From: an uncultured cyanobacterium
GTDB taxonomy: Bacteria; Cyanobacteriota; Cyanobacteriia; Cyanobacteriales; FACHB-T130
Direction: 5' to 3'
Length of the DNA stretch: 50,907 nucleotides
Assembly: GCA_936920195.1 (NCBI GenBank)
Contig: CAKZHE010000218.1
Span: forward strand, 1 to 50,907
The notes beneath the pieces are model-generated. The model ran no database searches. It saw only the letters and a program-made list of their open reading frames with translations, and was not told where the DNA came from. Position 1 is the stretch's first letter. The number at the start of each line of letters is the position of its first letter. Both the position numbers and the translations under genes were made by a program. Positions 4,596 through 50,907 of the stretch are shown one piece after another.

Positions 4596-5669
4596 ATGAA
4601 TGCCTTTCGGGAATTACTAAAAAAAATTGGCAGCGGTCCCCACACAGGTGAAAATTTAACTCGTCAGGAAGCTGCTGCTGCTATGCAAATGATGCTATCG
4701 CAGGAAGCTACTCCGGCTCAAATTGGCGCATTTATGATTGCCCATCGGATTAAACGCCCAACCGGGGCAGAATTAGCTGGGATGCTCGATGCCTGCGACT
4801 TACTCAGTCCGAAATTGTCCCCCAAAAATTCCGAACAATCACCAGTGATGGTGTTAGGCTGTCCCTATGATGGGCGATCGCGCACGGCTCCAATTTCCCC
4901 TTTAACTGCTTTAATTCTAGTTACTGCTGGGCAATCAGTAATTATTCACGGTGGGGAAAGGATGCCCACCAAAGAAGGTTTACCTCTGATTGAAGTTTGG
5001 CAAGGTTTGGGTGTAAATTGGGCAGCGCTGGATTGGCAACAAACTGAACAAGTATTTCACCAAACTGGATTAGGATTTGTTTATTTACCCCGGCATTTTC
5101 CCTTAGCACAGGGCTTAGTTACCTATCGCGAGCAAATTGGCAAGCGCCCCCCGTTGGCAACTATGGAGTTGATTTTCTCGCCATATTCTGGGAAAGTTCA
5201 TCTAGTTTCGGGATTTGTTCATCCTCCGACCGAAATTATGTTTCAGGAAGCCTTTACTTTGCGAGGAATTCCGGAGTATTTTACCACAGTTAAAGGACTG
5301 GAAGGTAGTTGCGATTTACCACGCGATCGCACTACAATTATTGGTTTGGGGAAATTAACTGAAGAACTCAATTCAGAAGTTAAAAAATATCACTTTGAAC
5401 GGCTGCTTTTACATCCCCGCGATTACGATCTTGCTGCCAAGGAAGTTCCCTTAGATTCAACAGCAGAATTATTAACCAAAATGCAAGCCGTTTTGCGCGG
5501 AGAAGTTTCCGAATTGATGTCGGCGGCAATTTGGAATGGAGGTTTTTATCTTTGGCGAGCCGGAATTTGTCAGGATGTAGCCGCCGGAATTGCTAAAGCA
5601 AAAAATTTGTTAGTTTCTGGAAAAGTAGCAGAAACTTTGCAAGGGATTCAAACTGCTGTATCTGCCTAG
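4596..5669 (+). CDS. anthranilate phosphoribosyltransferase-family (TrpD2-like) protein
   Basis: 357 aa. The N-terminal helical domain (LTRQEAAAAMQMMLSQEATPAQIGAF) and the nucleoside phosphorylase-type alpha/beta domain are those of the TrpD/glycosyltransferase family 3 fold. The phosphate-binding GTGGD loop of true TrpD is absent; the equivalent region reads LGCPYDGRSRTAPIS, and the metal-binding signature is also not typical. This matches the TrpD2 (YbiB-type) paralogues, reported to bind nucleic acid rather than make tryptophan. Canonical TrpD activity is therefore unlikely. No trp gene is nearby. The family is clear; the function is inferred. Confidence 0.8.
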   Translation: MNAFRELLKKIGSGPHTGENLTRQEAAAAMQMMLSQEATPAQIGAFMIAHRIKRPTGAELAGMLDACDLLSPKLSPKNSEQSPVMVLGCPYDGRSRTAPISPLTALILVTAGQSVIIHGGERMPTKEGLPLIEVWQGLGVNWAALDWQQTEQVFHQTGLGFVYLPRHFPLAQGLVTYREQIGKRPPLATMELIFSPYSGKVHLVSGFVHPPTEIMFQEAFTLRGIPEYFTTVKGLEGSCDLPRDRTTIIGLGKLTEELNSEVKKYHFERLLLHPRDYDLAAKEVPLDSTAELLTKMQAVLRGEVSELMSAAIWNGGFYLWRAGICQDVAAGIAKAKNLLVSGKVAETLQGIQTAVSA

Positions 5670-5775
5670 CGATCAAAGTTTAGATTCATTAATATATGGA
5701 ATATATGAAAATATTCATCAGGCAGAATTCAAAGTTTATTCCCAATTCGGTGAAGATGGGATTATTCAATTAACT

Positions 5776-5835
5776 AAGTTCGTAGTTGGGCTTCAGCCCT
5801 AATCCGGATTAGGGCTGAAGCCCAACTACGAACTT
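5776..5835. repeat. 60-bp perfect palindromic repeat
   Basis: A perfect 60-bp palindrome centred on AATCCGGATT (5801-5810), with arms containing GTAGTTGGGCTTCAGCCCT. Related copies lie at 8393-8454 and 46235-46285. It could fold into a long hairpin on either strand. The rest of 5670-5936 shows no gene. Confidence 0.95.
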
Positions 5836-5936
5836 TTGCTTTCTTTTATTTGTGACCACCTACTAACTAACTGAACCGTATTGGATTATAATCATAAGTT
5901 TATAGTAAACTTTGATTAGCTTTCGGCGATCGCCAA

Positions 5937-6788
5937 TTAATCGGGCAAATCTGGATCAATTCCTAATGCCCGCAACTTGGCTGCCAAGATTTCAGCCCGT
6001 TGGGATTCCTGTTCAGCCCGTTGACGTTCCTGTTCAGCCCGTTGGCGTTCCTGTTCAGCCCGTTGGGATTCCTGTTCAGCGCGTTGGGATTCCTGTTCAG
6101 CCCGTTGGGATTCCTGTTCGGCTCGTTGACGTTCCTGTTCGACTTGTTCTGAACTCCATAGTAGTAAATTACCCCCTCGATCCCACCAGCGCAACCAGTT
6201 CATTGTTTGTCCCAAGCGTTGCCCTGCCCAAAGTCCCAAATATAGTTCCACTTCAGGAATCCATACTCGTCCTTCAGCATTAGGCAACTCTAGAATATAT
6301 CGCCCATTTTGGCGATAACGGACTTCTAGATTGCCGTCGTAGGGATCGTAGATAATATATGTGGGTACTTGTAGAATCTGTTCGTAGAAGTGGAGTTTCC
6401 CGTATGGCGGAGTTGAGCGAATGGATAATTCTGCCCCATCTTCATCTGAGAGAAACTCCATCACAATTGCCACCGCTGCTCCCTCCGTATGAGGGGTGTA
6501 GCTCCGACGCACAATCCCCTCCGCGACAGGATTGACTTGGGGAACATATAACCAATCGGGCGCTTTGACAACAGTCTTTTTATTGACGGTGGCGACTAGC
6601 CCTAAATTAGTGGCAATCAGCATTTCTGGCTGGATATATCCTGCCGCTCCTAGGGCATCCGTCAGTGCCGCCGCCAGAGCGGGTTGTTGAATGTTTTCCA
6701 CAGGATCGTCTGGTAATACAAAGTTGGCTGGCAGGGGTTCCCAAGTGACGACTGGTTTGGTTTTGATCGATGGGACTTGAAGAACCAT
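5937..6788 (-). CDS. Uma2-family (DUF820) putative endonuclease with heptad-repeat tail
   Basis: 283 aa from the ATG at 6788 (a TTG 15 bp upstream is less likely). The Uma2/DUF820 fold of PD-(D/E)XK type is seen as VKAPDWLYVPQ, then IVMEFLSDED, then GKLHFYEQI, giving the expected Asp, Glu and Lys. After the domain, WWDRGGNLLLWSSEQVEQ leads into seven 7-residue units around QRAEQES (about residues 215-268), a predicted charged coiled coil. The tail LRALGIDPD resembles the end of the other Uma2 gene at the right edge. These proteins are abundant in cyanobacteria; their biological role is unproven. Confidence 0.88.
   Translation of the reverse strand: MVLQVPSIKTKPVVTWEPLPANFVLPDDPVENIQQPALAAALTDALGAAGYIQPEMLIATNLGLVATVNKKTVVKAPDWLYVPQVNPVAEGIVRRSYTPHTEGAAVAIVMEFLSDEDGAELSIRSTPPYGKLHFYEQILQVPTYIIYDPYDGNLEVRYRQNGRYILELPNAEGRVWIPEVELYLGLWAGQRLGQTMNWLRWWDRGGNLLLWSSEQVEQERQRAEQESQRAEQESQRAEQESQRAEQERQRAEQERQRAEQESQRAEILAAKLRALGIDPDLPD
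5990..6140. repeat. 21-bp in-frame tandem repeat within the Uma2 gene
   Basis: About seven imperfect copies of a 21-bp unit (core attcctgttcagcccgttgg) encode the 7-residue coiled-coil repeat. Because 21 is divisible by 3, copy-number change keeps the frame, so the coiled-coil length can vary between strains. Confidence 0.9.
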
Positions 6789-6856
6789 TGCATTAACCCT
6801 CAACCATAAATGTTGGCAACAAACTCAGATATATTATATCAAATTAATGCTAATAC

Positions 6857-8305
6857 TTAGGGTGTGGTTAAAGCGAACTCTACTTTGTAGGTAGTTTCTG
6901 ATATGCCTGGGGGCAGGGTAAATTGAATCGAATATTCTCCTGCTTCTGGTAGTTCCCAATCCCATTTTTGATTTCCTTGAATTTGAGAACTAATCAGTTG
7001 TTGGTTTTTTAAAACTGCAATTACTACGTCGCCGCTGACAACCGTCGCACTAAGCCGCTGTCCCACTTGAGCAGTAAAACTATAATTAACTGGTTCATTA
7101 TTGGCGATCTTTCCTTCTTTGACAAAAGCTGAATTTGCCGGGGTTGGGACTGCGGAAGGAGTGGTGCTTGGCGATGGACTATCTACTGGGGAAGGATTAA
7201 CGAGAGTATTGTCAACAGAGGAAGGATTTGGAGATGAAGGATTTGGAGATGAAACTTTTGAACTTTTGGCAATAGGAGTAGGAGGCTTTTTCATCGAGTT
7301 CATCAACACTCCAAACCCCACAATAGCTACAATAAAGAATCCCCCAGCAATGACAATGGGATTATTAAGCGGGTTAGGAGCAGGCTTTTTGGGAGCCGCA
7401 GTAAAAGTAACGCGGGGTTTGGCAACAGTGCTGCCTGTTGATTTCTTGGCTGGTGCTAAAGTATGAATAAATCCCTGCAAAGCTAAAATTACATCAGTAG
7501 TAGATTGATAGCGATTGTTTGGTCTGGGACTGAGCATTCGGTTTAACAATTGGGCAAAGTCATTGCTGAGAGTGGGAACCCATTGTTGCCAGCGCCAAGT
7601 CATGGTAGATTGATCTAGAAGTTCCTGGGGTTTCTTCCCCGTCATTAGCACCACAGCAGTTACAGCTAAGGCGTAAAGATCGCTATTCGGAGAAACTTCT
7701 CCAGTTTGTAATTGTTCTGGGGGGGAGTAACCCAATTTGCCGACAGTAGTACCTTGCATTCCGGCTTCGCTGTCGCTGGGAACAATACCAGCTTTAACGG
7801 CTCCAAAGTCAATTAATACGGGCAGGCGATCGCCATCTCTTAAAATAATATTATCTGGAGAGATATCGCGATGCACAATCCCTTTTTGGTGAATATAATT
7901 TAGGGCTGGTAATATTTGTTGTAAAAAGAGGGCGACTTCATGGGGCGAAAAGGTTTCCTGTTTTGCCATGCGTTCGTCCAACAAGTCGCGATAGCTTTTC
8001 CCTTGAATGAAATCTTGGACTAAAAATAACCGTTTCTGCTGTTCAAAGGTGGCGTGGAAGTGGGGAATTTGGGGATGCTGAATTTGATAGAGGATGGATG
8101 CTTCCCTTTGAAACAATTCTTGGGATTTCTGTAAGACGTAAGGATCTGTATCATTAGGACAATATTCTTTCAATACGCAGGGTTCGTCAAAGCGGGCAGA
8201 ATCTGCCGCTAGGTAAGTGCGCCCAAACCCACCTCGCCCAATGGTTTTGGTTAAACGATAGCGATTTTGGAGGACTGTTCCTAAAGGCAGGGGTAAGGAA
8301 GCCAT
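6857..8305 (-). CDS. membrane-anchored serine/threonine protein kinase
   Basis: 482 aa. The Hanks-type kinase domain spans about 16-285: glycine loop GRGGFGRTY (23-31), catalytic Lys46 in VLKEYCP, HRDISPDN with H145-R146-D147, DFG at 166-168 and the SPPEQ activation segment end. All key residues are present, so it should be active. A Pro/Lys-rich linker precedes one transmembrane helix (about 315-337), then a Ser/Pro-rich stretch and a C-terminal beta-rich domain (about 390-482) resembling the pre-peptidase C-terminal type, probably extracytoplasmic. Topology suggests a transmembrane sensor kinase. The substrate is unknown. Confidence 0.93.
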   Translation of the reverse strand: MASLPLPLGTVLQNRYRLTKTIGRGGFGRTYLAADSARFDEPCVLKEYCPNDTDPYVLQKSQELFQREASILYQIQHPQIPHFHATFEQQKRLFLVQDFIQGKSYRDLLDERMAKQETFSPHEVALFLQQILPALNYIHQKGIVHRDISPDNIILRDGDRLPVLIDFGAVKAGIVPSDSEAGMQGTTVGKLGYSPPEQLQTGEVSPNSDLYALAVTAVVLMTGKKPQELLDQSTMTWRWQQWVPTLSNDFAQLLNRMLSPRPNNRYQSTTDVILALQGFIHTLAPAKKSTGSTVAKPRVTFTAAPKKPAPNPLNNPIVIAGGFFIVAIVGFGVLMNSMKKPPTPIAKSSKVSSPNPSSPNPSSVDNTLVNPSPVDSPSPSTTPSAVPTPANSAFVKEGKIANNEPVNYSFTAQVGQRLSATVVSGDVVIAVLKNQQLISSQIQGNQKWDWELPEAGEYSIQFTLPPGISETTYKVEFALTTP

Positions 8306-18903: not shown

Positions 18904-19338
18904 ATGGAAGATTATCAAGGCGCTTTCATAGAACGCCACACTGATACCGAAACACTATGCCAATCTGGTAGAAAAATCGCCGCCATGCACTTTGGTGGTA
19001 TAACCATCGAGTGTCTATTAAAAGCGATGATTTTTGCATCATTACCAAAGGGTGCTACTCAGGAATGGATGAATGACTCCAACAATCCTGGACATACGAT
19101 TACGAATCCAAAACATAGCTACCACGAAGCATTAAGACGGCATAATCGACTTAGATCGAGAATTGAAAGTTTTCCCACAGTCCGAAGATGGCTAGATGAA
19201 GTAGAAAATCCCATCAGCCAACATTTCATAGATATCCGCTATTCTGGCATTGATCCTGATGATACAAAATACAAACGCTGGTTAAACGCATATCAGCGTC
19301 TCAGAAAATGGTTGCAAAAGCAAGCAACTCAACTTTAA
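18904..19338 (+). CDS. HEPN-like domain protein, first gene of a candidate accessory operon
   Basis: 144 aa, all helical. CQSGRKIAAMHFGGITIECL plus a C-terminal DIRYSG and a long helix are the pattern of HEPN-type proteins. The catalytic RNase motif Rx4-6H of toxin HEPNs is not visible, so it may be a binding or non-nuclease member, or only HEPN-like. The stop is 11 bp before the next ATG, and the strong Shine-Dalgarno of the next gene (AGGGAGG) overlaps this stop, so the two genes are almost certainly co-transcribed. Composition is more AT-rich than flanking housekeeping genes. Confidence 0.65.
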   Translation: MEDYQGAFIERHTDTETLCQSGRKIAAMHFGGITIECLLKAMIFASLPKGATQEWMNDSNNPGHTITNPKHSYHEALRRHNRLRSRIESFPTVRRWLDEVENPISQHFIDIRYSGIDPDDTKYKRWLNAYQRLRKWLQKQATQL

Positions 19339-19345
19339 GGGAGGT
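19338..19345 (+). promoter_or_regulatory. strong ribosome-binding site fixing the ATPase start
   Basis: AAGGGAGG lies 4-5 bp upstream of the ATG at 19350 and overlaps the TAA of the HEPN-like gene. It decides against the longer frame beginning at 19308 inside the upstream gene. Confidence 0.8.
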
Positions 19346-19349
19346 TAAA

Positions 19350-22019
19350 ATGCAAGAAAACTGGCAAGTGCTGCTTAAGCGGGATATTACCAACAAATAT
19401 GTCCAGAATCCGCCCAAAGATTGGGTTGATGTTAATATTTCTACATCTGGCTTGTTGAATCTAACGATTGTCAGCGATCGCTTTATCGGTTTATCCATGC
19501 CCCAGCGCAAAGCTGAAATTTCTAGCTTACTTCAATCTCATCTTCCTCATTTATCTCCGGGATTTCTCTCCCTATATACCCTTCAAGAAGCCGAATCCCT
19601 CAATATTTCCCCACCCCAGGTTTCCAATCCAGTCTTAGTCAATACTTGGCAAGATTTAGCTATTCAAGCTGCAAATCCCCAAAATCAACCTCAACTACCC
19701 CAGCCAGAACTTAGCTTACCCAGAACAGTAACATTTTATTCCTTTAAAGGAGGAGTCGGACGCACTACCGCATTAACTCATGTGGCGGCAATTTTAGCCA
19801 TGCGGGGGCTTAAAATTGTAGCTGTTGATTTAGATTTAGAAGCACCTGGATTGAGTACAGCATTCAACCTCAAACCCCAACCAAAATATGGGATTGTTGA
19901 CTATTTTTATGAGCGTTCCTATTTGCCAGATGGAGTAAAACCGAGTATTTCAATTGCAGAAATATTTGGTGAAGTAAAATTCCCTAATGCCACCGGAAGA
20001 TTATTTGTGGTTCCGGCTGGTTTTCTCGATCTTGATTATATCTCTAAAGTTGACGATCTCCACGCTACTACTATTATTGATGGAAATAAAAGTCTTTGGT
20101 CTATTTTTAAAGAAGAAATCCAAGAACAATTAAAACCAGATATTCTCTTGGTTGACTCAAGAACTGGAATTAATCAATGGGGAGCGATATCATTAATCGA
20201 AGCCGCTGACGAAGCCATCATTTTTCTTTTCCCTAACGAACAAAACAAACAGGGAATAGAATTACTCTTGCAATCGCTTCAGAGCCTAAAAAGTCTATCA
20301 ATTAATTTTGTTTTTTCTCCAGTACCAGATCTTACCAAAACTGGCTTGTCGAAAGTAAAGAAAGTTTATAAATCTTTGCTTGAAAACATTAAAACATTCC
20401 CCAGTGAAAATGAAGACAACGACTTCGATAAATCTGAACTAGAAATACCAGAACCTTTGGTAGTGCCTTACCTACCAACAATTGCTTTAGCAGAAAACTA
20501 TCCTGTGCCAGCTTTACTAGATTATTATAATAAAATTGCTAACTTGATTGATGAAGAAACTGATGAACTCCAACGCAGAAATATTTTAACTAATTCAGAA
20601 AAACGTTGGCCAATCATTGAAAGTCTACAATTTCCTGAAGTAAATGCCGCTAATACAAAAAATTTGAGTTTACTATTTCAGCGCACCACTGATTTTGAAA
20701 AATTTTTAGACGATACAACCTGTTTGATAAGAGGAAGAAAAGGAACAGGGAAAACTGCACTATATTCCCTTTTCCTAAAACACAAAAGCGTTGCTCAAAA
20801 ACTAGCTCATGGACGCTTGGATAATACCACATTTTTGTCAGCACATGGCAGTTTTAAGGAAAGCCGTCCCTCTCGTGATGAATTCCAAACTATTCATGAG
20901 AATTTGCAAGAAAATAATGGATCGTGGGAATCTTTTTGGAGAGCTTATTTACTGCTAAGATGTTATCAAGAAGATTTATTTAAGTTCCCTAGAGATAATA
21001 AATTTAGCGAACTGAAAGAAATTATTAATAAGTTGTCTAAAGATAGATGGCAGTACGAATGTACCGAGGCTTTAATCGAATTATCTACTCGTTCTCATCT
21101 GCGACTTATAGTTAAAGATACCATAGATATCATAAATCAAAAAGCTCAAGATAATTCTCAAAAATTGTGGTTTCTTTACGATGATTTAGATGAGGATTTT
21201 CGGAAAGTAGGAGAACTAAGGCAGCAAGCTCTGGCTGGATTATTCCAATTAATTCAGTCTTGTGATGCTAATAGATTAAGGGCAATTAGGTTTAAAATCT
21301 TCTTAAGAGAAGATATCTGGAATCGTTTAATTTTTGACAATAGAAGTCATTTTAATGGTCGTGATATTCTCTTGCAATGGAATAAGATTGATTTTCTTCG
21401 TTTAGCATTACGCCAAGCAATGCAATCTAATACTTTCAAAAGTTTAGTTGACAGATTTTCTCCGATTGCTATTGAAAGTATTGATAAAGCCAGTGAAGAA
21501 GAAATTGACAAAGCTTTAGAATTGCTTTGGGGCAGTCGTCGCAGAATAGGTGATAAAGCTAAATATGTATCTAGATGGGTTTATGAACGATTAACAGACT
21601 CAAGCGGTACTACTTTTCCTAGAAGTTTAAGCATATTACTAGAAGGAGCGAAAGAGCAAGAATTAAGTTATAAAGGAAAATCATCAATTCAACCACCAAC
21701 CGATCGTTTACTGCGAAGTAAATCTTTAGAAGTTGGGTTGAAGAAAGCATCAGAAAAACGCTGTGAAGAAATTAAAGAAGAATATCCTGATTTGACTCAA
21801 TTTTTTGATTATCTTAAGGGAGAATCAGCTTTTTTAGAAAGACAACAACTGGAAGAAATATGGCATAAATCAGCTTATAATACAGAAGTAAACTTTGAGG
21901 AATTCGCTTCTTCTCTAGGCGAAATAGGCATTGTTGAATGGCGGAAAAAAGAACAACGCTATAAATTTGCGGACATATATGTGTATGGGTTTGAAATGGA
22001 TCGCAAAGGAGCAGTTTAG
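19350..22019 (+). CDS. BolA-like / MinD-ParA-like / Sll1717-type P-loop fusion ATPase
   Basis: 889 aa. Residues 1-90 contain LTIVSDRFIGLSMPQRK, a BolA-like VSDxFxG...R signature without the usual RHR. Residues 125-440 form a MinD/ParA-type NTPase with deviant Walker A FKGGVGRTTAL (about 132-142), VAVDLDLEAPGLS and VDSRTGINQWGA. The rest is a second P-loop ATPase with RGRKGTGKTALY (about 461-472) and a Walker B-like LWFLYDDLDEDF (about 604), as in the Sll1717 ATPase family, followed by helices. The combination suggests a large signalling or defence ATPase, but function is inferred. Its stop overlaps the stop of the convergent RsbW-like gene. AT-rich, with HIP1 octamers almost absent after the first 130 bp. 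Confidence 0.8.
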   Translation: MQENWQVLLKRDITNKYVQNPPKDWVDVNISTSGLLNLTIVSDRFIGLSMPQRKAEISSLLQSHLPHLSPGFLSLYTLQEAESLNISPPQVSNPVLVNTWQDLAIQAANPQNQPQLPQPELSLPRTVTFYSFKGGVGRTTALTHVAAILAMRGLKIVAVDLDLEAPGLSTAFNLKPQPKYGIVDYFYERSYLPDGVKPSISIAEIFGEVKFPNATGRLFVVPAGFLDLDYISKVDDLHATTIIDGNKSLWSIFKEEIQEQLKPDILLVDSRTGINQWGAISLIEAADEAIIFLFPNEQNKQGIELLLQSLQSLKSLSINFVFSPVPDLTKTGLSKVKKVYKSLLENIKTFPSENEDNDFDKSELEIPEPLVVPYLPTIALAENYPVPALLDYYNKIANLIDEETDELQRRNILTNSEKRWPIIESLQFPEVNAANTKNLSLLFQRTTDFEKFLDDTTCLIRGRKGTGKTALYSLFLKHKSVAQKLAHGRLDNTTFLSAHGSFKESRPSRDEFQTIHENLQENNGSWESFWRAYLLLRCYQEDLFKFPRDNKFSELKEIINKLSKDRWQYECTEALIELSTRSHLRLIVKDTIDIINQKAQDNSQKLWFLYDDLDEDFRKVGELRQQALAGLFQLIQSCDANRLRAIRFKIFLREDIWNRLIFDNRSHFNGRDILLQWNKIDFLRLALRQAMQSNTFKSLVDRFSPIAIESIDKASEEEIDKALELLWGSRRRIGDKAKYVSRWVYERLTDSSGTTFPRSLSILLEGAKEQELSYKGKSSIQPPTDRLLRSKSLEVGLKKASEKRCEEIKEEYPDLTQFFDYLKGESAFLERQQLEEIWHKSAYNTEVNFEEFASSLGEIGIVEWRKKEQRYKFADIYVYGFEMDRKGAV

Positions 22020-22889: not shown

Positions 22890-24446
22890 CTAGGCATTTG
22901 GATTAGATGTGGAAGGTTCTGGCTTCTTGCCAGAATTGCGGACATTGATAATTTTGCCCAGCAAATCAAACCAAAAGGGCGCACCCATCGACATCGCGAT
23001 GCCGCTAACTATCCAACCAAAAAACCGTCTCAACCAGCCAAAAGAAAAGCCATAAATTTGCCAATGAGCGCTTTCTTCCTCTTGTTGCTTAATATTTTCT
23101 TCGCTTCTACCTAAAGGCAAGGAAACTCCGGCTAAACTATGATTAACATCCTGGCGAATACAATCTAACTGGGAATTTTGTTGTTCTGGACTGGCAGAAG
23201 TTGGACAATTAACTACCGTCTTACCTGCATTTTCTACAATGGCATTGCGGAGTGCCGAATCTTTTGACAGCCGATTAACTATATGAAAGGTATCAGCATT
23301 AGCCACAAAAGCAATCAAAAAGCCAATCACAAAAGCTACCCCTTTGGCATTGCGTTTATAAACGCCAGAGGCTCGCTCCATTGAGCGATCAAACCAGGTT
23401 TCAACCTCTTTTTGAAATTGATATAGTTCGTCTTCTGTTTTAGCAGCGTTTATTTGCGCTCTATTCGCCAAGGCTGACAGACTATTTTGAACTTGTTTCG
23501 GGAATTTACTGGAAATAAGGTGGATTTTTTGTTCTATCCCCTGATAAATTTTGTAAGCCGCAGTATTTTCATCACCCAGATCTTTTTTGATGTCTTCATA
23601 TACTTCATGGCTAGTATTTAGCATATTGATAATTTGGCTAATCCTAGGTTTCAATCTTTGCCCTACTTCATCTATATCGATAAAGACATTATCTTCCAAT
23701 TCCTTTAATTTATTCACAAACTTTTCTTGGGCAGTAGTTTCATTTTCTTGATTAAATTGACTGCTGGAATTCTCAATGAATTTATGCAATCCTTTTTGCA
23801 GCATCATCAAGGCATTTTTAATGCTGATTTTACGAGAATCAAAAAGGTTGAAAATATCATCAAAGCTGCTGCTCAATTCTTCAAGTCGATCGTTAAGTTG
23901 TTGGCGAGTTTCATCACAGATATCTGTTGTTTCATCAATTAGAGTTCTAATTTTAGCTTCGATTTCGTTGTCCTCTAGTTTTTTCAAATTTAATGAATTT
24001 AGATCGTGAGTGATTTCCGGGGTTTTGAGTTTTTCCATCAGAGTGCTGGCGAATGTTTCGGCAGGAATGTATGATGGAGCGCTGGTTCGATCTTTACCAT
24101 TCTCATCTTTCCCCAAATCATGTTTAGCTCCAGTTATTTTCCGGGAAATGCCGCCAATCAGCCAAGTAATTTGCCGAAAGAAAAGAGCTATGCCACCTTT
24201 AGCTTCTTGGTTAATATTTTTGATTAAGGGATTATTGTATAAATCATTAACAATGTTTTTTACGGATTCATCTTCGGGAGTACCTTCTCCACCCGTCAGG
24301 AGAATTTCTACCGATTTTTTTAAGTGGACGGCTCGCCATTGCAAGAGGGTGGTCAACAGTTCCTGGATTTCCGATGATAGCAAGCTGAGGATTAAGTAAA
24401 TAAAAATTAATCCGATGGCAATATCTAGAATGAGAGGGAAATTCAT
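22890..24446 (-). CDS. membrane protein with long cytoplasmic coiled-coil region, hypothetical
   Basis: 518 aa. An N-terminal transmembrane helix (about 6-28, IAIGLIFIYLILSLLSSEIQ) is followed by about 330 mostly charged residues predicted helical/coiled (for example LKKLEDNEIEAKIRTLIDET). Two further hydrophobic segments follow (about 372-392 and about 470-495), with the C-terminal motif GAPFWFDLLGKIINVRNSGK. The first helix plus GAPFWFDLL occur in a conserved but uncharacterised bacterial membrane family I recall without a name. No enzyme motif. Monocistronic, with 200 bp upstream. Confidence 0.8.
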   Translation of the reverse strand: MNFPLILDIAIGLIFIYLILSLLSSEIQELLTTLLQWRAVHLKKSVEILLTGGEGTPEDESVKNIVNDLYNNPLIKNINQEAKGGIALFFRQITWLIGGISRKITGAKHDLGKDENGKDRTSAPSYIPAETFASTLMEKLKTPEITHDLNSLNLKKLEDNEIEAKIRTLIDETTDICDETRQQLNDRLEELSSSFDDIFNLFDSRKISIKNALMMLQKGLHKFIENSSSQFNQENETTAQEKFVNKLKELEDNVFIDIDEVGQRLKPRISQIINMLNTSHEVYEDIKKDLGDENTAAYKIYQGIEQKIHLISSKFPKQVQNSLSALANRAQINAAKTEDELYQFQKEVETWFDRSMERASGVYKRNAKGVAFVIGFLIAFVANADTFHIVNRLSKDSALRNAIVENAGKTVVNCPTSASPEQQNSQLDCIRQDVNHSLAGVSLPLGRSEENIKQQEEESAHWQIYGFSFGWLRRFFGWIVSGIAMSMGAPFWFDLLGKIINVRNSGKKPEPSTSNPNA

Positions 24447-33426: not shown

Positions 33427-33477
33427 AATTCATGGGTGGGATATTGGATGAGTGAGAGCGTTTAGTTAAGGCGTTAC

Positions 33478-34623
33478 ATGATTAGTAAAACTGAATTCAT
33501 TAGTCTTTTTAGTAGCAGCTTTTGGAAGAAAATCATTGATGAAACTTTAGTTCCATACCTGCAAGACACAAAACCTAATAAAACAGAAACGATTGAGAAA
33601 CTCTATGATGATATTAATCATAGACACTATTATCCTGGACTGCCACGCGAGTATCTAGTTTTTGATAAACACAATTGCGTGTCAAGAATAGTACCAGTCT
33701 TTGATTTGCGTGAAAACTGTACATATTACTTCTGTATCAAACAACTAGAACAAGCTATTGCACTTAATCGGGTTGATGGAACATTCGGAGGGTGGAGTTT
33801 AGGCAATCCAATCCGAAAAAGAGAAGAGGAGGAGTTACAAGAACTGACACCTCCTTCACCAATTCCTCAAAACAGCTATAACTCATTTAAATGGTCAGAA
33901 AATTGGAAGGAGTTTCAAAAACGTGCTTATCTTTATAGTCAAAATCAAAATCACTGCTTTTTTCTGGAATTTGATATTGCAAATTTTTATGACACAATTA
34001 ATCTTTCTCTTTTAGAAGATAAAATTAGACTGATCACTGTTTCCAAAGATGCTTTTGTAGTTGATTTACTTTTTCACTTCCTTAGAAACTGGAATCGCAG
34101 ATTTGAAAGATATTCGCAGAAATCTGTAGGAATACCACAAGATGAAGTTGGTGACTGTTCTCGCATTTTAGCCAACTTTTATTTACAGGATTATGATGCT
34201 TTTATGAAGGCTCAATGTGACAATAACAGGGCTTGCTATCTTAGATATGCTGACGATCAAATTATTATGGCTCATAATGAAGAAATTGCTTATGAAATTC
34301 TTTTTGAAGCTTCAAAAGAGCTATTCAAAATTAATCTAAATATCAATTCTAGTAAGGTTAAACCTTTTTATTCCAGAGAAGATTTTTATAAATACTGGGC
34401 TTTTGAACTTTTTGAATTACTGGATGATCCTAACAATGTGGATAAAGTTAATCAAGGAATAGAGCTTTATTTTAAATGGCTCGATGATGGAGTCCACTTC
34501 CGTCATGATTCTGTATTACGCCGAATAGTTAGTGTTGGTCTTTCCATAGTAAAACCTCATTTAAAACATAGGCTGATGTCGGAAATCAGGATTTCCAGAG
34601 AGCGAAATTATGAAACGTATTGA
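33478..34623 (+). CDS. stand-alone reverse transcriptase (RNA-directed DNA polymerase)
   Basis: 381 aa. RT motifs are in order: FLEFDIANFYDTI (motif A, catalytic Asp, about 163-173), VGIPQDEVGDCSRILANFY (motif B region, about 217-235) and YLRYADDQII with the YADD catalytic box (about 254-263). No group II intron maturase/endonuclease domain and no intron RNA is visible around it, so it is more like the unknown-group/defence-type RTs. The pre-RT region (PVFDLRENCTYYFCIKQLEQ, then FGGWSLGNP) is distinctive. AT-rich, with no HIP1 octamer, unlike both neighbours; this suggests transfer. Class not assigned. Confidence 0.85.
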   Translation: MISKTEFISLFSSSFWKKIIDETLVPYLQDTKPNKTETIEKLYDDINHRHYYPGLPREYLVFDKHNCVSRIVPVFDLRENCTYYFCIKQLEQAIALNRVDGTFGGWSLGNPIRKREEEELQELTPPSPIPQNSYNSFKWSENWKEFQKRAYLYSQNQNHCFFLEFDIANFYDTINLSLLEDKIRLITVSKDAFVVDLLFHFLRNWNRRFERYSQKSVGIPQDEVGDCSRILANFYLQDYDAFMKAQCDNNRACYLRYADDQIIMAHNEEIAYEILFEASKELFKINLNINSSKVKPFYSREDFYKYWAFELFELLDDPNNVDKVNQGIELYFKWLDDGVHFRHDSVLRRIVSVGLSIVKPHLKHRLMSEIRISRERNYETY

Positions 34624-34648
34624 TGAACTCACTCTAAGATTAAGCTAG
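34610..34648 (+). pseudogene. 12-codon overlapping ORF after the RT gene, possible remnant
   Basis: ATG at 34610 overlaps the RT stop (34621-34623) by 14 bp in another frame and reads MKRIDELTLRLS before a TAG. It is either the start of a lost downstream partner gene or the former RT C-terminus after a frameshift. The stretch 34649-34716 shows nothing further. Confidence 0.35.
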
Positions 34649-37252: not shown

Positions 37253-37264
37253 AGAGCGCTAATT

Positions 37265-37512
37265 GGTGAGTGGATAGTGGGTGCTAGTTTGTAGGTACTG
37301 GGTTCTAGGTTCTAGGTTATCGGTTCTAGGTTCTAGGTCATCGGTTCTAGGTTTTAGGTTATCGGTTCTAGGTCATCGGTTATCGGTACTTGAACATCAA
37401 GGATTGAGCTTTGTTCAGCTATTTTCCTATTCCCTGTTCCCTGTTCCCTATTCCCTATTCCCTATTACCTATTACCTATTACCTATTACCTATTACCTAT
37501 TACCTATTCACT
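37265..37512. repeat. two adjacent low-complexity tracts between dnaK and dnaJ
   Basis: First part (37295-37395): imperfect units of ggttctaggttctagg with atcggttct. Second part (37430-37512): units of ttccctattccc grading into attacctattacct. They occupy nearly all of the dnaK-dnaJ spacer. No gene. Confidence 0.88.
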
Positions 37513-37533
37513 ATAGCATAATCCAGATAAAAA

Positions 37534-50202: not shown

Positions 50203-50907
50203 CTATTCATCGGGGTTGATACCCAGCGCTCTGAGCCTTTCGGCAAGTCGTTGAGCTTTTTGTTCGGCTGTCTGTTTTGCCAACCGCTCTCGTTCGGCAA
50301 TTAGACGTTCTTGCTGGGCAATTAGACGTTCTTGAGTCGCGATCGCCTCCGCATTAATCGCTCTTTCCTTCGCCGTCAGATAGCGATTTCCTGACTCATC
50401 ATACCAATAGAGCCATTCTCGCTCCCAACCAATATGCTCCCCATTTTCATAACCCAACGCTAACTCAATCTCTGGCAACCAAACTCGATTATTTTCACTT
50501 GGCAGCATTTCATATTTCTCGTCTATTAACCGATACACTTCCAATCTTTGTCTATTTTTAAATCGACCTTTTCTGCCCGTCAAGGGATTGTAAATCGCAT
50601 AATAGAGAATTCCTAATTTTTGATAATCTTCTAACTTCTGCTCATATTCGCTGTTATATCTCTCCGAAACTACTTCCAAAGCCAAAATTGGCATAATATT
50701 ATTTTCTGCCCACCGCAAATAGCTTAATCGGCCTTTTTCCCCAGTATCACGTTTGACTCCCACTGCTAAAAAGCCATCGGGAACAATTGCCGCTTCATCA
50801 GGATTGTAATAAACCCCCATATCCACCCCAAAATACCAATCATCCCGATTTGCCCAAATTAAGGCTAATAAGCTCAGAAGGAGATTGGGAATGTCGTTTT
50901 GTAACTG
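50203..50907 (-). CDS. Uma2-family (DUF820) putative endonuclease, 5' end outside the window
   Basis: At least 235 aa; the frame stays open to the right edge (reading LQNDIPNLLLSLLALIWANR before DDWYFGVDMG), so the GTG at 50826 is internal and the true start lies beyond the window. PD-(D/E)XK elements: VPDGFLAVGV, ILALEVVSE and YEQKLEDYQKLG. A C-terminal charged coiled coil with repeated QERLIA units and the tail LRALGINPDE follows, as in the Uma2 gene at 5937-6788. Confidence 0.88.
   Translation of the reverse strand, partial: QLQNDIPNLLLSLLALIWANRDDWYFGVDMGVYYNPDEAAIVPDGFLAVGVKRDTGEKGRLSYLRWAENNIMPILALEVVSERYNSEYEQKLEDYQKLGILYYAIYNPLTGRKGRFKNRQRLEVYRLIDEKYEMLPSENNRVWLPEIELALGYENGEHIGWEREWLYWYDESGNRYLTAKERAINAEAIATQERLIAQQERLIAERERLAKQTAEQKAQRLAERLRALGINPDE

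What the first reader, a model, noticed from the sequence alone, without database searches (positions are those of the whole stretch)
33478..34648. Solitary AT-rich reverse transcriptase unlike intron or retron RTs
Motifs A, B and YADD are intact; there is no maturase domain, no intron RNA, and no DGR repeats noticed nearby. The gene is compositionally unlike its neighbours and lacks HIP1 sites. Stand-alone RTs of this type are often antiviral (DRT/unknown-group). The distinctive pre-RT block (VFDLRENCTYYFCIK ... FGGWSLG) may define its class.
Basis: partly seen in the sequence, partly recalled or inferred. Interest (0 to 1): 0.62.

Follow-up and report, generated by a model that had tools for sequence, protein, structure and literature searches.

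The report
Broken copy of UG13b reverse transcriptase
A cyanobacterial gene resembling known bacterial anti-virus reverse transcriptases is real, but this copy has lost the end of the protein and looks like a decaying remnant, so it is a rare but fairly ordinary member of a known family.

Summary
The reverse transcriptase (RT) is real and belongs to a named family that appears unstudied: PADLOC RT_UG13b, 473.6 bits against 102.1 for the next model. In a 25-row tree it falls inside a supported UG13b clade, apart from the group II intron, retron-like, RT-Cas1, UG13a, UG19, Drt5, Drt8 and AbiP2 rows.

The gene is not intact. Against an 86%-identical Nostoc homologue (446 aa) it lacks 170 bp near the 3' end and changes frame, leaving 381 aa; the family C-terminus survives only in another frame, ending at 34648. 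The third member of this subclade, G442, is also broken, beside a transposase gene. Both broken copies show excess amino-acid change. No intron RNA, DGR-like repeats, known ncRNA or SLATT partner was found.

Best reading: a horizontally acquired, solitary, probably inactivated defence-type RT. By-product: all four alphaproteobacterial-clade UG13b loci have a tail-to-tail SLATT_5 gene, against none of five in this clade.

The parts
33478..34623 (+). Truncated UG13b reverse transcriptase ORF (381 aa); native sequence to residue 368 or so (RLMS), then 13 out-of-frame residues
33697..33741 (+). Family block VFDLRENCTYYFCIK; YY present in all 9 UG13b proteins compared
33784..33804 (+). Family block FGGWSLG; FGGW in 8 of 9 UG13b proteins, 0 of 16 other RTs
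33970..33993 (+). RT motif A, FDIANFYD (motif name recalled)
34246..34257 (+). RT motif C, YADD (motif name recalled); Nostoc and G442 homologues read YSDD
34577..34582 (+). Deletion junction: 170 bp present in the Nostoc homologue are absent here and the frame changes
34580..34648 (+). Remnant of the family C-terminus in another frame (RKSGFPESEIMKRIDELTLRLS, stop)
33449..33477 (+). Only about 29 bp of upstream sequence align with Nostoc; Nostoc and G442 share 84 bp with each other

Best explanation
This is a horizontally acquired, single-gene UG13b-family (UG/Abi, DRT-type) reverse transcriptase that sits alone between housekeeping genes and has been inactivated, or at least C-terminally truncated, by a 170-bp deletion with a frame change. 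Shown: family membership, intact RT core motifs, loss of the C-terminus, excess amino-acid change in the broken copies, and no SLATT gene or recognised RNA partner. Inferred: that intact members (such as the Nostoc copy) act in anti-phage defence by making cDNA, as studied DRTs do, and that the missing C-terminal region, predicted helical in a low-confidence model, is needed for that, so this copy is a decaying remnant.
For: PADLOC RT_UG13b 473.6 bits, next model 102.1. The Nostoc copy scores 517.6 bits over profile 2-427 of 430, the window only over 2-357. UG13b is one clade of 9 rows (98/95) in a 25-row tree. A 170-bp deletion (mod 3 = 2) ends the protein 65 aa short of the Nostoc one, and of the 79-aa Nostoc C-terminal peptide the own genome holds only residues 56-78, at this place in another frame. 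The sister copy in G442 ends 27 bp from a DDE transposase gene, with its 3' part absent from the 14 kb fetched. Over 323 codons the unique amino-acid/synonymous changes are window 25/34, Nostoc (intact) 8/44, G442 (broken) 27/31; Fisher p = 0.003 and 0.0005. Pairwise dN/dS is 0.05-0.11 by two methods, so most of the history was under constraint. Low GC and a patchy spread, 3 of 388 genomes of the order with the own one included, fit horizontal gain.
Against: The 381-codon ORF has no internal stop and keeps its catalytic motifs, so a truncated but active enzyme is not excluded. The assembly is a draft (326 contigs) and the deletion could not be checked against reads. The selection test uses three sequences polarised by majority only; dS is near or above 1 (saturated), and the 330 codons include a few past the break in G442. 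The AlphaFold model of the Nostoc protein is poor (mean pLDDT 59.1), so the role of the missing region is unknown. Antiviral activity of UG13b was not found in the papers seen.
Confidence: 0.78

Rival explanations
1. The shortened 381-aa RT is still functional: the catalytic core is complete and the C-terminal tail is dispensable or replaced, so this is a working minimal DRT.
For: No internal stop codon in 381 codons; RT motifs intact; overall dN/dS well below 1.
Against: The 7 UG13b proteins not known to be broken are 441-482 aa, with starts as chosen here; aligned C-terminal residues are lost and 13 aberrant residues added; excess amino-acid changes in this copy; upstream homology to Nostoc is down to about 29 bp.
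Confidence: 0.13
2. The deletion is an assembly artefact and the strain carries a full-length, working UG13b RT.
For: Draft genome of 326 contigs.
Against: The junction lies well inside a 50.9-kb contig; the junction sequences share only a few bases, so a repeat collapse is not expected; the missing peptide was not found elsewhere in the genome, which is 95% complete; excess amino-acid change in the remaining codons.
Confidence: 0.07
3. It is a group II intron, CRISPR-associated, DGR or retron RT that lost its cassette.
For: The best NCBIfam hit is group_II_RT_mat at 59.9 bits; the best PDB sequence hits are group II intron-type RTs, with retron, Cas1-fused and DRT2 chains below.
Against: That score is far below the curated cut-off of 300; the tree places it outside the group II, RT-Cas1 and retron-like rows; no intron RNA, repeats or known RNA family nearby. 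DGR placement was not tested with a verified DGR row.
Confidence: 0.02

Closest known systems
PADLOC RT_UG13b (UG/Abi reverse transcriptases, DRT group)
   Same: Match over positions 2-357 of the 430-position profile, 473.6 bits; same clade as the eight other UG13b proteins; YY/FGGW block.
   Different: The last 73 profile positions are not matched and the frame is shifted; no SLATT_5 neighbour, unlike the four alphaproteobacterial-type members.
DRT10 (UG17 RT + ncRNA + SLATT protein; PMC12632851, passages and outline seen)
   Same: UG-type RT; SLATT_5 sits next to the RT in the alphaproteobacterial branch of UG13b.
   Different: The RT_UG17 model gives only 60 bits; no SLATT_5 in this genome; no ncRNA found.
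DRT9 (UG28 RT + ncRNA, sometimes SLATT; PMC12483538, passages seen)
   Same: UG RT, sometimes with a SLATT partner.
   Different: UG28/Drt9 is not among the 25 PADLOC models shown of 76 matched; the gap upstream of this RT is 51 bp, little room for an upstream ncRNA.
UG13a
   Same: Shares the UG13 label in PADLOC; motif DVANFYD.
   Different: 88.6 bits only; the two UG13a proteins lack FGGW and the YY block and form their own branch in the tree, where deep forks are weak.

Membership tests
UG13b RT family (PADLOC RT_UG13b) | Best and dominant match to the family profile | tested here: met
   473.6 bits against 102.1 for the next model
UG13b RT family (PADLOC RT_UG13b) | Falls in the UG13b clade | tested here: met
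   9-row clade, 98/95 support, in a 25-row tree
UG13b RT family (PADLOC RT_UG13b) | Catalytic motifs A and C and the YY/FGGW block | tested here: met
UG13b RT family (PADLOC RT_UG13b) | Complete C-terminal region of the family | tested here: not met
   170-bp deletion and frame change; profile covered only to 357 of 430. So: a truncated member, not an intact one
DRT (functional anti-phage system) | Protects against phage and makes cDNA | not testable with these tools
   needs expression and plaque assays
SLATT-coupled DRT (DRT9/DRT10-like) | Adjacent SLATT gene | tested here: not met
   three SLATT queries gave no hit at E 1 in window, L021, L079, L080 or L046, while they did find L022 and L047; none in the whole genome at E 0.1
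SLATT-coupled DRT (DRT9/DRT10-like) | Conserved structured ncRNA in cis | tested here: inconclusive
   no Rfam family at the window nor a usable one in L021, L022, L024; of 10 flanking stretches folded, Nostoc upstream stands out at z -2.53, the rest between -0.96 and 0.44; too few intact relatives to test covariation
Group II intron RT | Clade with intron RTs, maturase domain, intron RNA | tested here: not met
Diversity-generating retroelement | Template/variable repeat pair near the RT | tested here: not met
Retron | Clade with retron RTs and an msr-msd RNA | tested here: inconclusive
   UG13b clade excludes the one retron-like row, itself below NCBIfam cut-offs; no Rfam match; St85 retron model only 38.9 bits against a cut-off of 235

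The most novel reading that the evidence does not exclude
UG13b is an unstudied antiviral RT lineage with two architectures: a tail-to-tail RT + SLATT_5 membrane-effector pair in alphaproteobacterial plasmids and a prophage-like contig (4 of 4 loci), which may work like DRT10 with cDNA controlling a SLATT pore, and a solitary RT in cyanobacteria and one phage-like contig (5 of 5 without SLATT) that must deliver its effect by another route. The cyanobacterial form is costly or dispensable and is repeatedly broken at its C-terminus, as in this window.
Probability: 0.25. Interest if true: 0.55.

Novelty: new member of a known kind. Interest (0 to 1): 0.3.

Why it matters
The window copy itself is mainly a caution: intact motifs do not mean an intact gene. 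The family is worth more. UG13b RTs are named in a defence database, but the searches made here showed no paper that studies them (6 papers, none on bacterial RTs by title and abstract start; no mention of UG13 in three bacterial RT papers). The contrast between SLATT-paired and solitary branches gives a testable way to ask what the SLATT partner contributes to RT-based immunity.

Tried and rejected
Group II intron and CRISPR RT readings: rejected by the tree and family scores. DGR: no repeat pair seen. Retron: no support, but only one retron-like reference row.

HIP1 depletion as evidence of foreignness: rejected, P(0) = 0.22.

Empty-site comparison: in the 11 relatives where rsgA was found, the anti-sigma-type gene was not next to it, and the gene beyond the rsgA 3' end differs among many of them, so no clean pre-insertion site could be read.

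ncRNA search: Rfam gave nothing usable (one search listed two sub-threshold miRNA matches in L022). Comparing intergenic regions of the four alphaproteobacterial-type loci gave one 66-bp match at 71%, upstream of the RT in one locus and of SLATT in the other, plus three shorter ones (14-32 bp); I judged by eye that the 66-bp match is a dispersed repeat and dropped it, which is not tested. Fold z-scores were unremarkable except Nostoc upstream, -2.53.

Structure: the AlphaFold model of the Nostoc RT is poor (pLDDT 59.1) and the 50 Foldseek hits shown have TM under 0.5; they only say "RT" and were not used to assign a UG class. Class 1, 2 or 3 is left open.

Promoter and terminator scan: 8 promoter-like sites against 6.3 expected; 4 terminator-like sites against 1.2 expected, none of them just downstream of the ORF; not used.

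In one search the C-terminal peptide was translated out of frame by mistake; that part is discarded and replaced by the in-frame search. The SLATT comparison and HIP1 figure stand.

Tree rows: 25 were chosen from the RT loci fetched. Duplicates of the same locus (L001, L002, L045, L078, L081, L083, L084, L089) and other RT loci, most of them unclassified, were left out. Labels come; L005, L009 and L014 score 292-295 bits with group_II_RT_mat, just under its cut-off of 300, and the retron-like row is below its cut-offs. The G442 and L046 rows were placed by alignment and tree, not by a PADLOC scan of their own (G442 matched the UG13b profile).

Full report
Observation. An ORF of 381 aa runs from 33478 to 34623 on the + strand. 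It matches RVT_1 and keeps FDIANFYD, SVGIPQD and YADD (known to me as RT motifs A, B and C). Its GC is 0.335 (third position 0.25) against 0.447 for the window, the lowest of 38 non-overlapping ATG-start ORFs of 90 aa or more. Neighbours by Pfam are a STAS/sugar-transferase and an anti-sigma-type HATPase upstream, and RsgA, TusA, DnaJ and Hsp70 genes downstream. The absence of HIP1 octamers is true but expected by chance with probability 0.22.

Identity. In PADLOC the protein scores 473.6 bits with RT_UG13b and 102.1 with the next model, RT_UG21. NCBIfam gives only hits far below cut-off (group_II_RT_mat 59.9 bits, cut-off 300). Relatives are few. Among 100 relatives 27 genomes match at E 1e-3, but apart from the own genome only G075 is strong (4.5e-61); the next is 6.8e-11 and is a UG19 RT. 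The genome-contig scan, which reaches close relatives only, gave one locus (Nostoc sp. B(2019), 86%). There are three plasmid records of Rhodobacterales (24-29%), no match in the phage records, and 19 viral-contig loci of which two match over most of the query (L046 50%, L047 29%) and 17 are weaker. A profile search gave 3 of 388 genomes of the same order at E 1e-30, the own one included; phylum samples gave only the own genome, 1 of 386 at E 1e-25 and 1 of 244 at E 1e-40. A 25-row tree with references labelled puts all nine UG13b proteins in one clade (98/95), apart from the group II, RT-Cas1, retron-like, UG13a, UG19, Drt5, Drt8 and AbiP2 rows; deep forks are weak and several branches long.

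The gene is broken. The Nostoc homologue is 446 aa and fills the family profile to 427 of 430; the window protein stops at 357. A DNA alignment shows colinearity to the codons for RLMS, then 170 bp of Nostoc sequence are missing, which changes the frame. In the own genome the Nostoc C-terminal peptide (79 aa) finds only its residues 56-78, at this place. Upstream, Nostoc and G442 share 84 bp before the start codon; the window aligns with Nostoc over about 29 bp.

A second broken relative. In G442 (two contigs, this one 5.3 Mb) the RT ends near codon 325, 27 bp from a gene with a DDE transposase domain (PF01609, 34.5 bits, cut-off 23), and its 3' part is not found in the 14 kb fetched. So two of the three members of this subclade are truncated at the 3' end. 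Over 323 codons the unique amino-acid versus synonymous changes are window 25/34, Nostoc 8/44, G442 27/31; Fisher p = 0.003 (window against Nostoc) and 0.0005 (G442 against Nostoc). Pairwise dN/dS is 0.05-0.11, with dS at or above 1, so most of the history was under constraint and the decay is later. The test has three sequences and no outgroup polarity.

Partners. Each of the four alphaproteobacterial-type UG13b loci has a SLATT_5 gene (PF18160) tail to tail with the RT: L022, L023, L024 and L047, with spacing from a 20-bp overlap to a 30-bp gap. In L022 (Paracoccus plasmid pMOS7) the SLATT reading frame is split in two. None of the five loci of the other branch (window, L021, L079, L080, L046) gives a SLATT match, and the own genome has no SLATT_5. 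The tree separates these two groups with 100/100 and 100/99 support, so this is one gain or loss, not nine independent facts. SLATT_5 is known with UG17 (82% in complete genomes; PMC8934634, passages seen), a SLATT protein is needed by DRT10 (PMC12632851, passages seen), and DRT9 sometimes has one (PMC12483538, passages seen). For UG13 itself, one search listed 6 papers, none on bacterial RTs by title and abstract start; a wider string search listed 25 of 308 papers, none on RTs by title; and the word UG13 does not occur in the three RT papers searched. The main UG/Abi survey (Mestre et al. 2022) is not held, so the pairing may already be in print there.

Mechanism. Studied DRTs make DNA without a nucleic-acid template (Class 1) or from a cis ncRNA (Class 2) (PMC13174585, passages seen). 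UG13b could not be assigned to a class here: the AlphaFold model is poor, its Foldseek hits are generic and no ncRNA was established. I infer that an intact copy is a single-gene defence RT, and that the window copy, missing its C-terminal region, is inactive or nearly so (confidence 0.78).

Verdict. A real, rare, laterally spread RT of a named family for which I found no study; this copy is a decaying remnant. New member of a known kind; interest 0.3.

Noticed in passing
window 18904-19338 and 19308-22019 (+): A second AT-rich island (GC 0.36 for the large gene) matches PADLOC candidate defence locus M28: PDC-M28A (E 4.2e-8), then a 903-aa protein that looks like a fusion of PDC-M28B (E 8.5e-38) and PDC-M28C (E 5.4e-31) with an AAA_31/ParA-type NTPase domain.
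   Followed up: partly
L022, L023, L024, L047: UG13b RT genes of alphaproteobacterial plasmids and a prophage-like contig each have a SLATT_5 gene tail to tail; in L022 the SLATT frame is split.
   Followed up: yes
L079 (G442) 5414-7560: Close UG13b homologue cut off beside a DDE transposase gene, 3' end of the RT absent.
   Followed up: yes
L082 (G000:C91:632-1267): The only other RVT_1 match of the own genome; its best NCBIfam hits are retron RTs, all below cut-off (Ec67 type 233.7 bits, cut-off 450).
   Followed up: partly
window 22890-24446 (-): 518-aa gene of low GC (0.39) with only weak ZorA-like matches (E 0.002), function unclear.
   Followed up: no
window 50203-50820 (-): Uma2-type gene (PF05685) that also matches PADLOC candidate PDC-S03 (E 3.3e-9).
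   Followed up: no
window 37259-37527: Intergenic tandem repeats between the DnaJ and Hsp70 genes, with copies spaced by 14 or 21 nt (GGTTCTA and TTACCTA types).
   Followed up: no
L003 205-2334 (-), genome G070: Cyanobacterial UG19-type RT of 710 aa (582.4 bits) with YVDD, from the same order.
   Followed up: no
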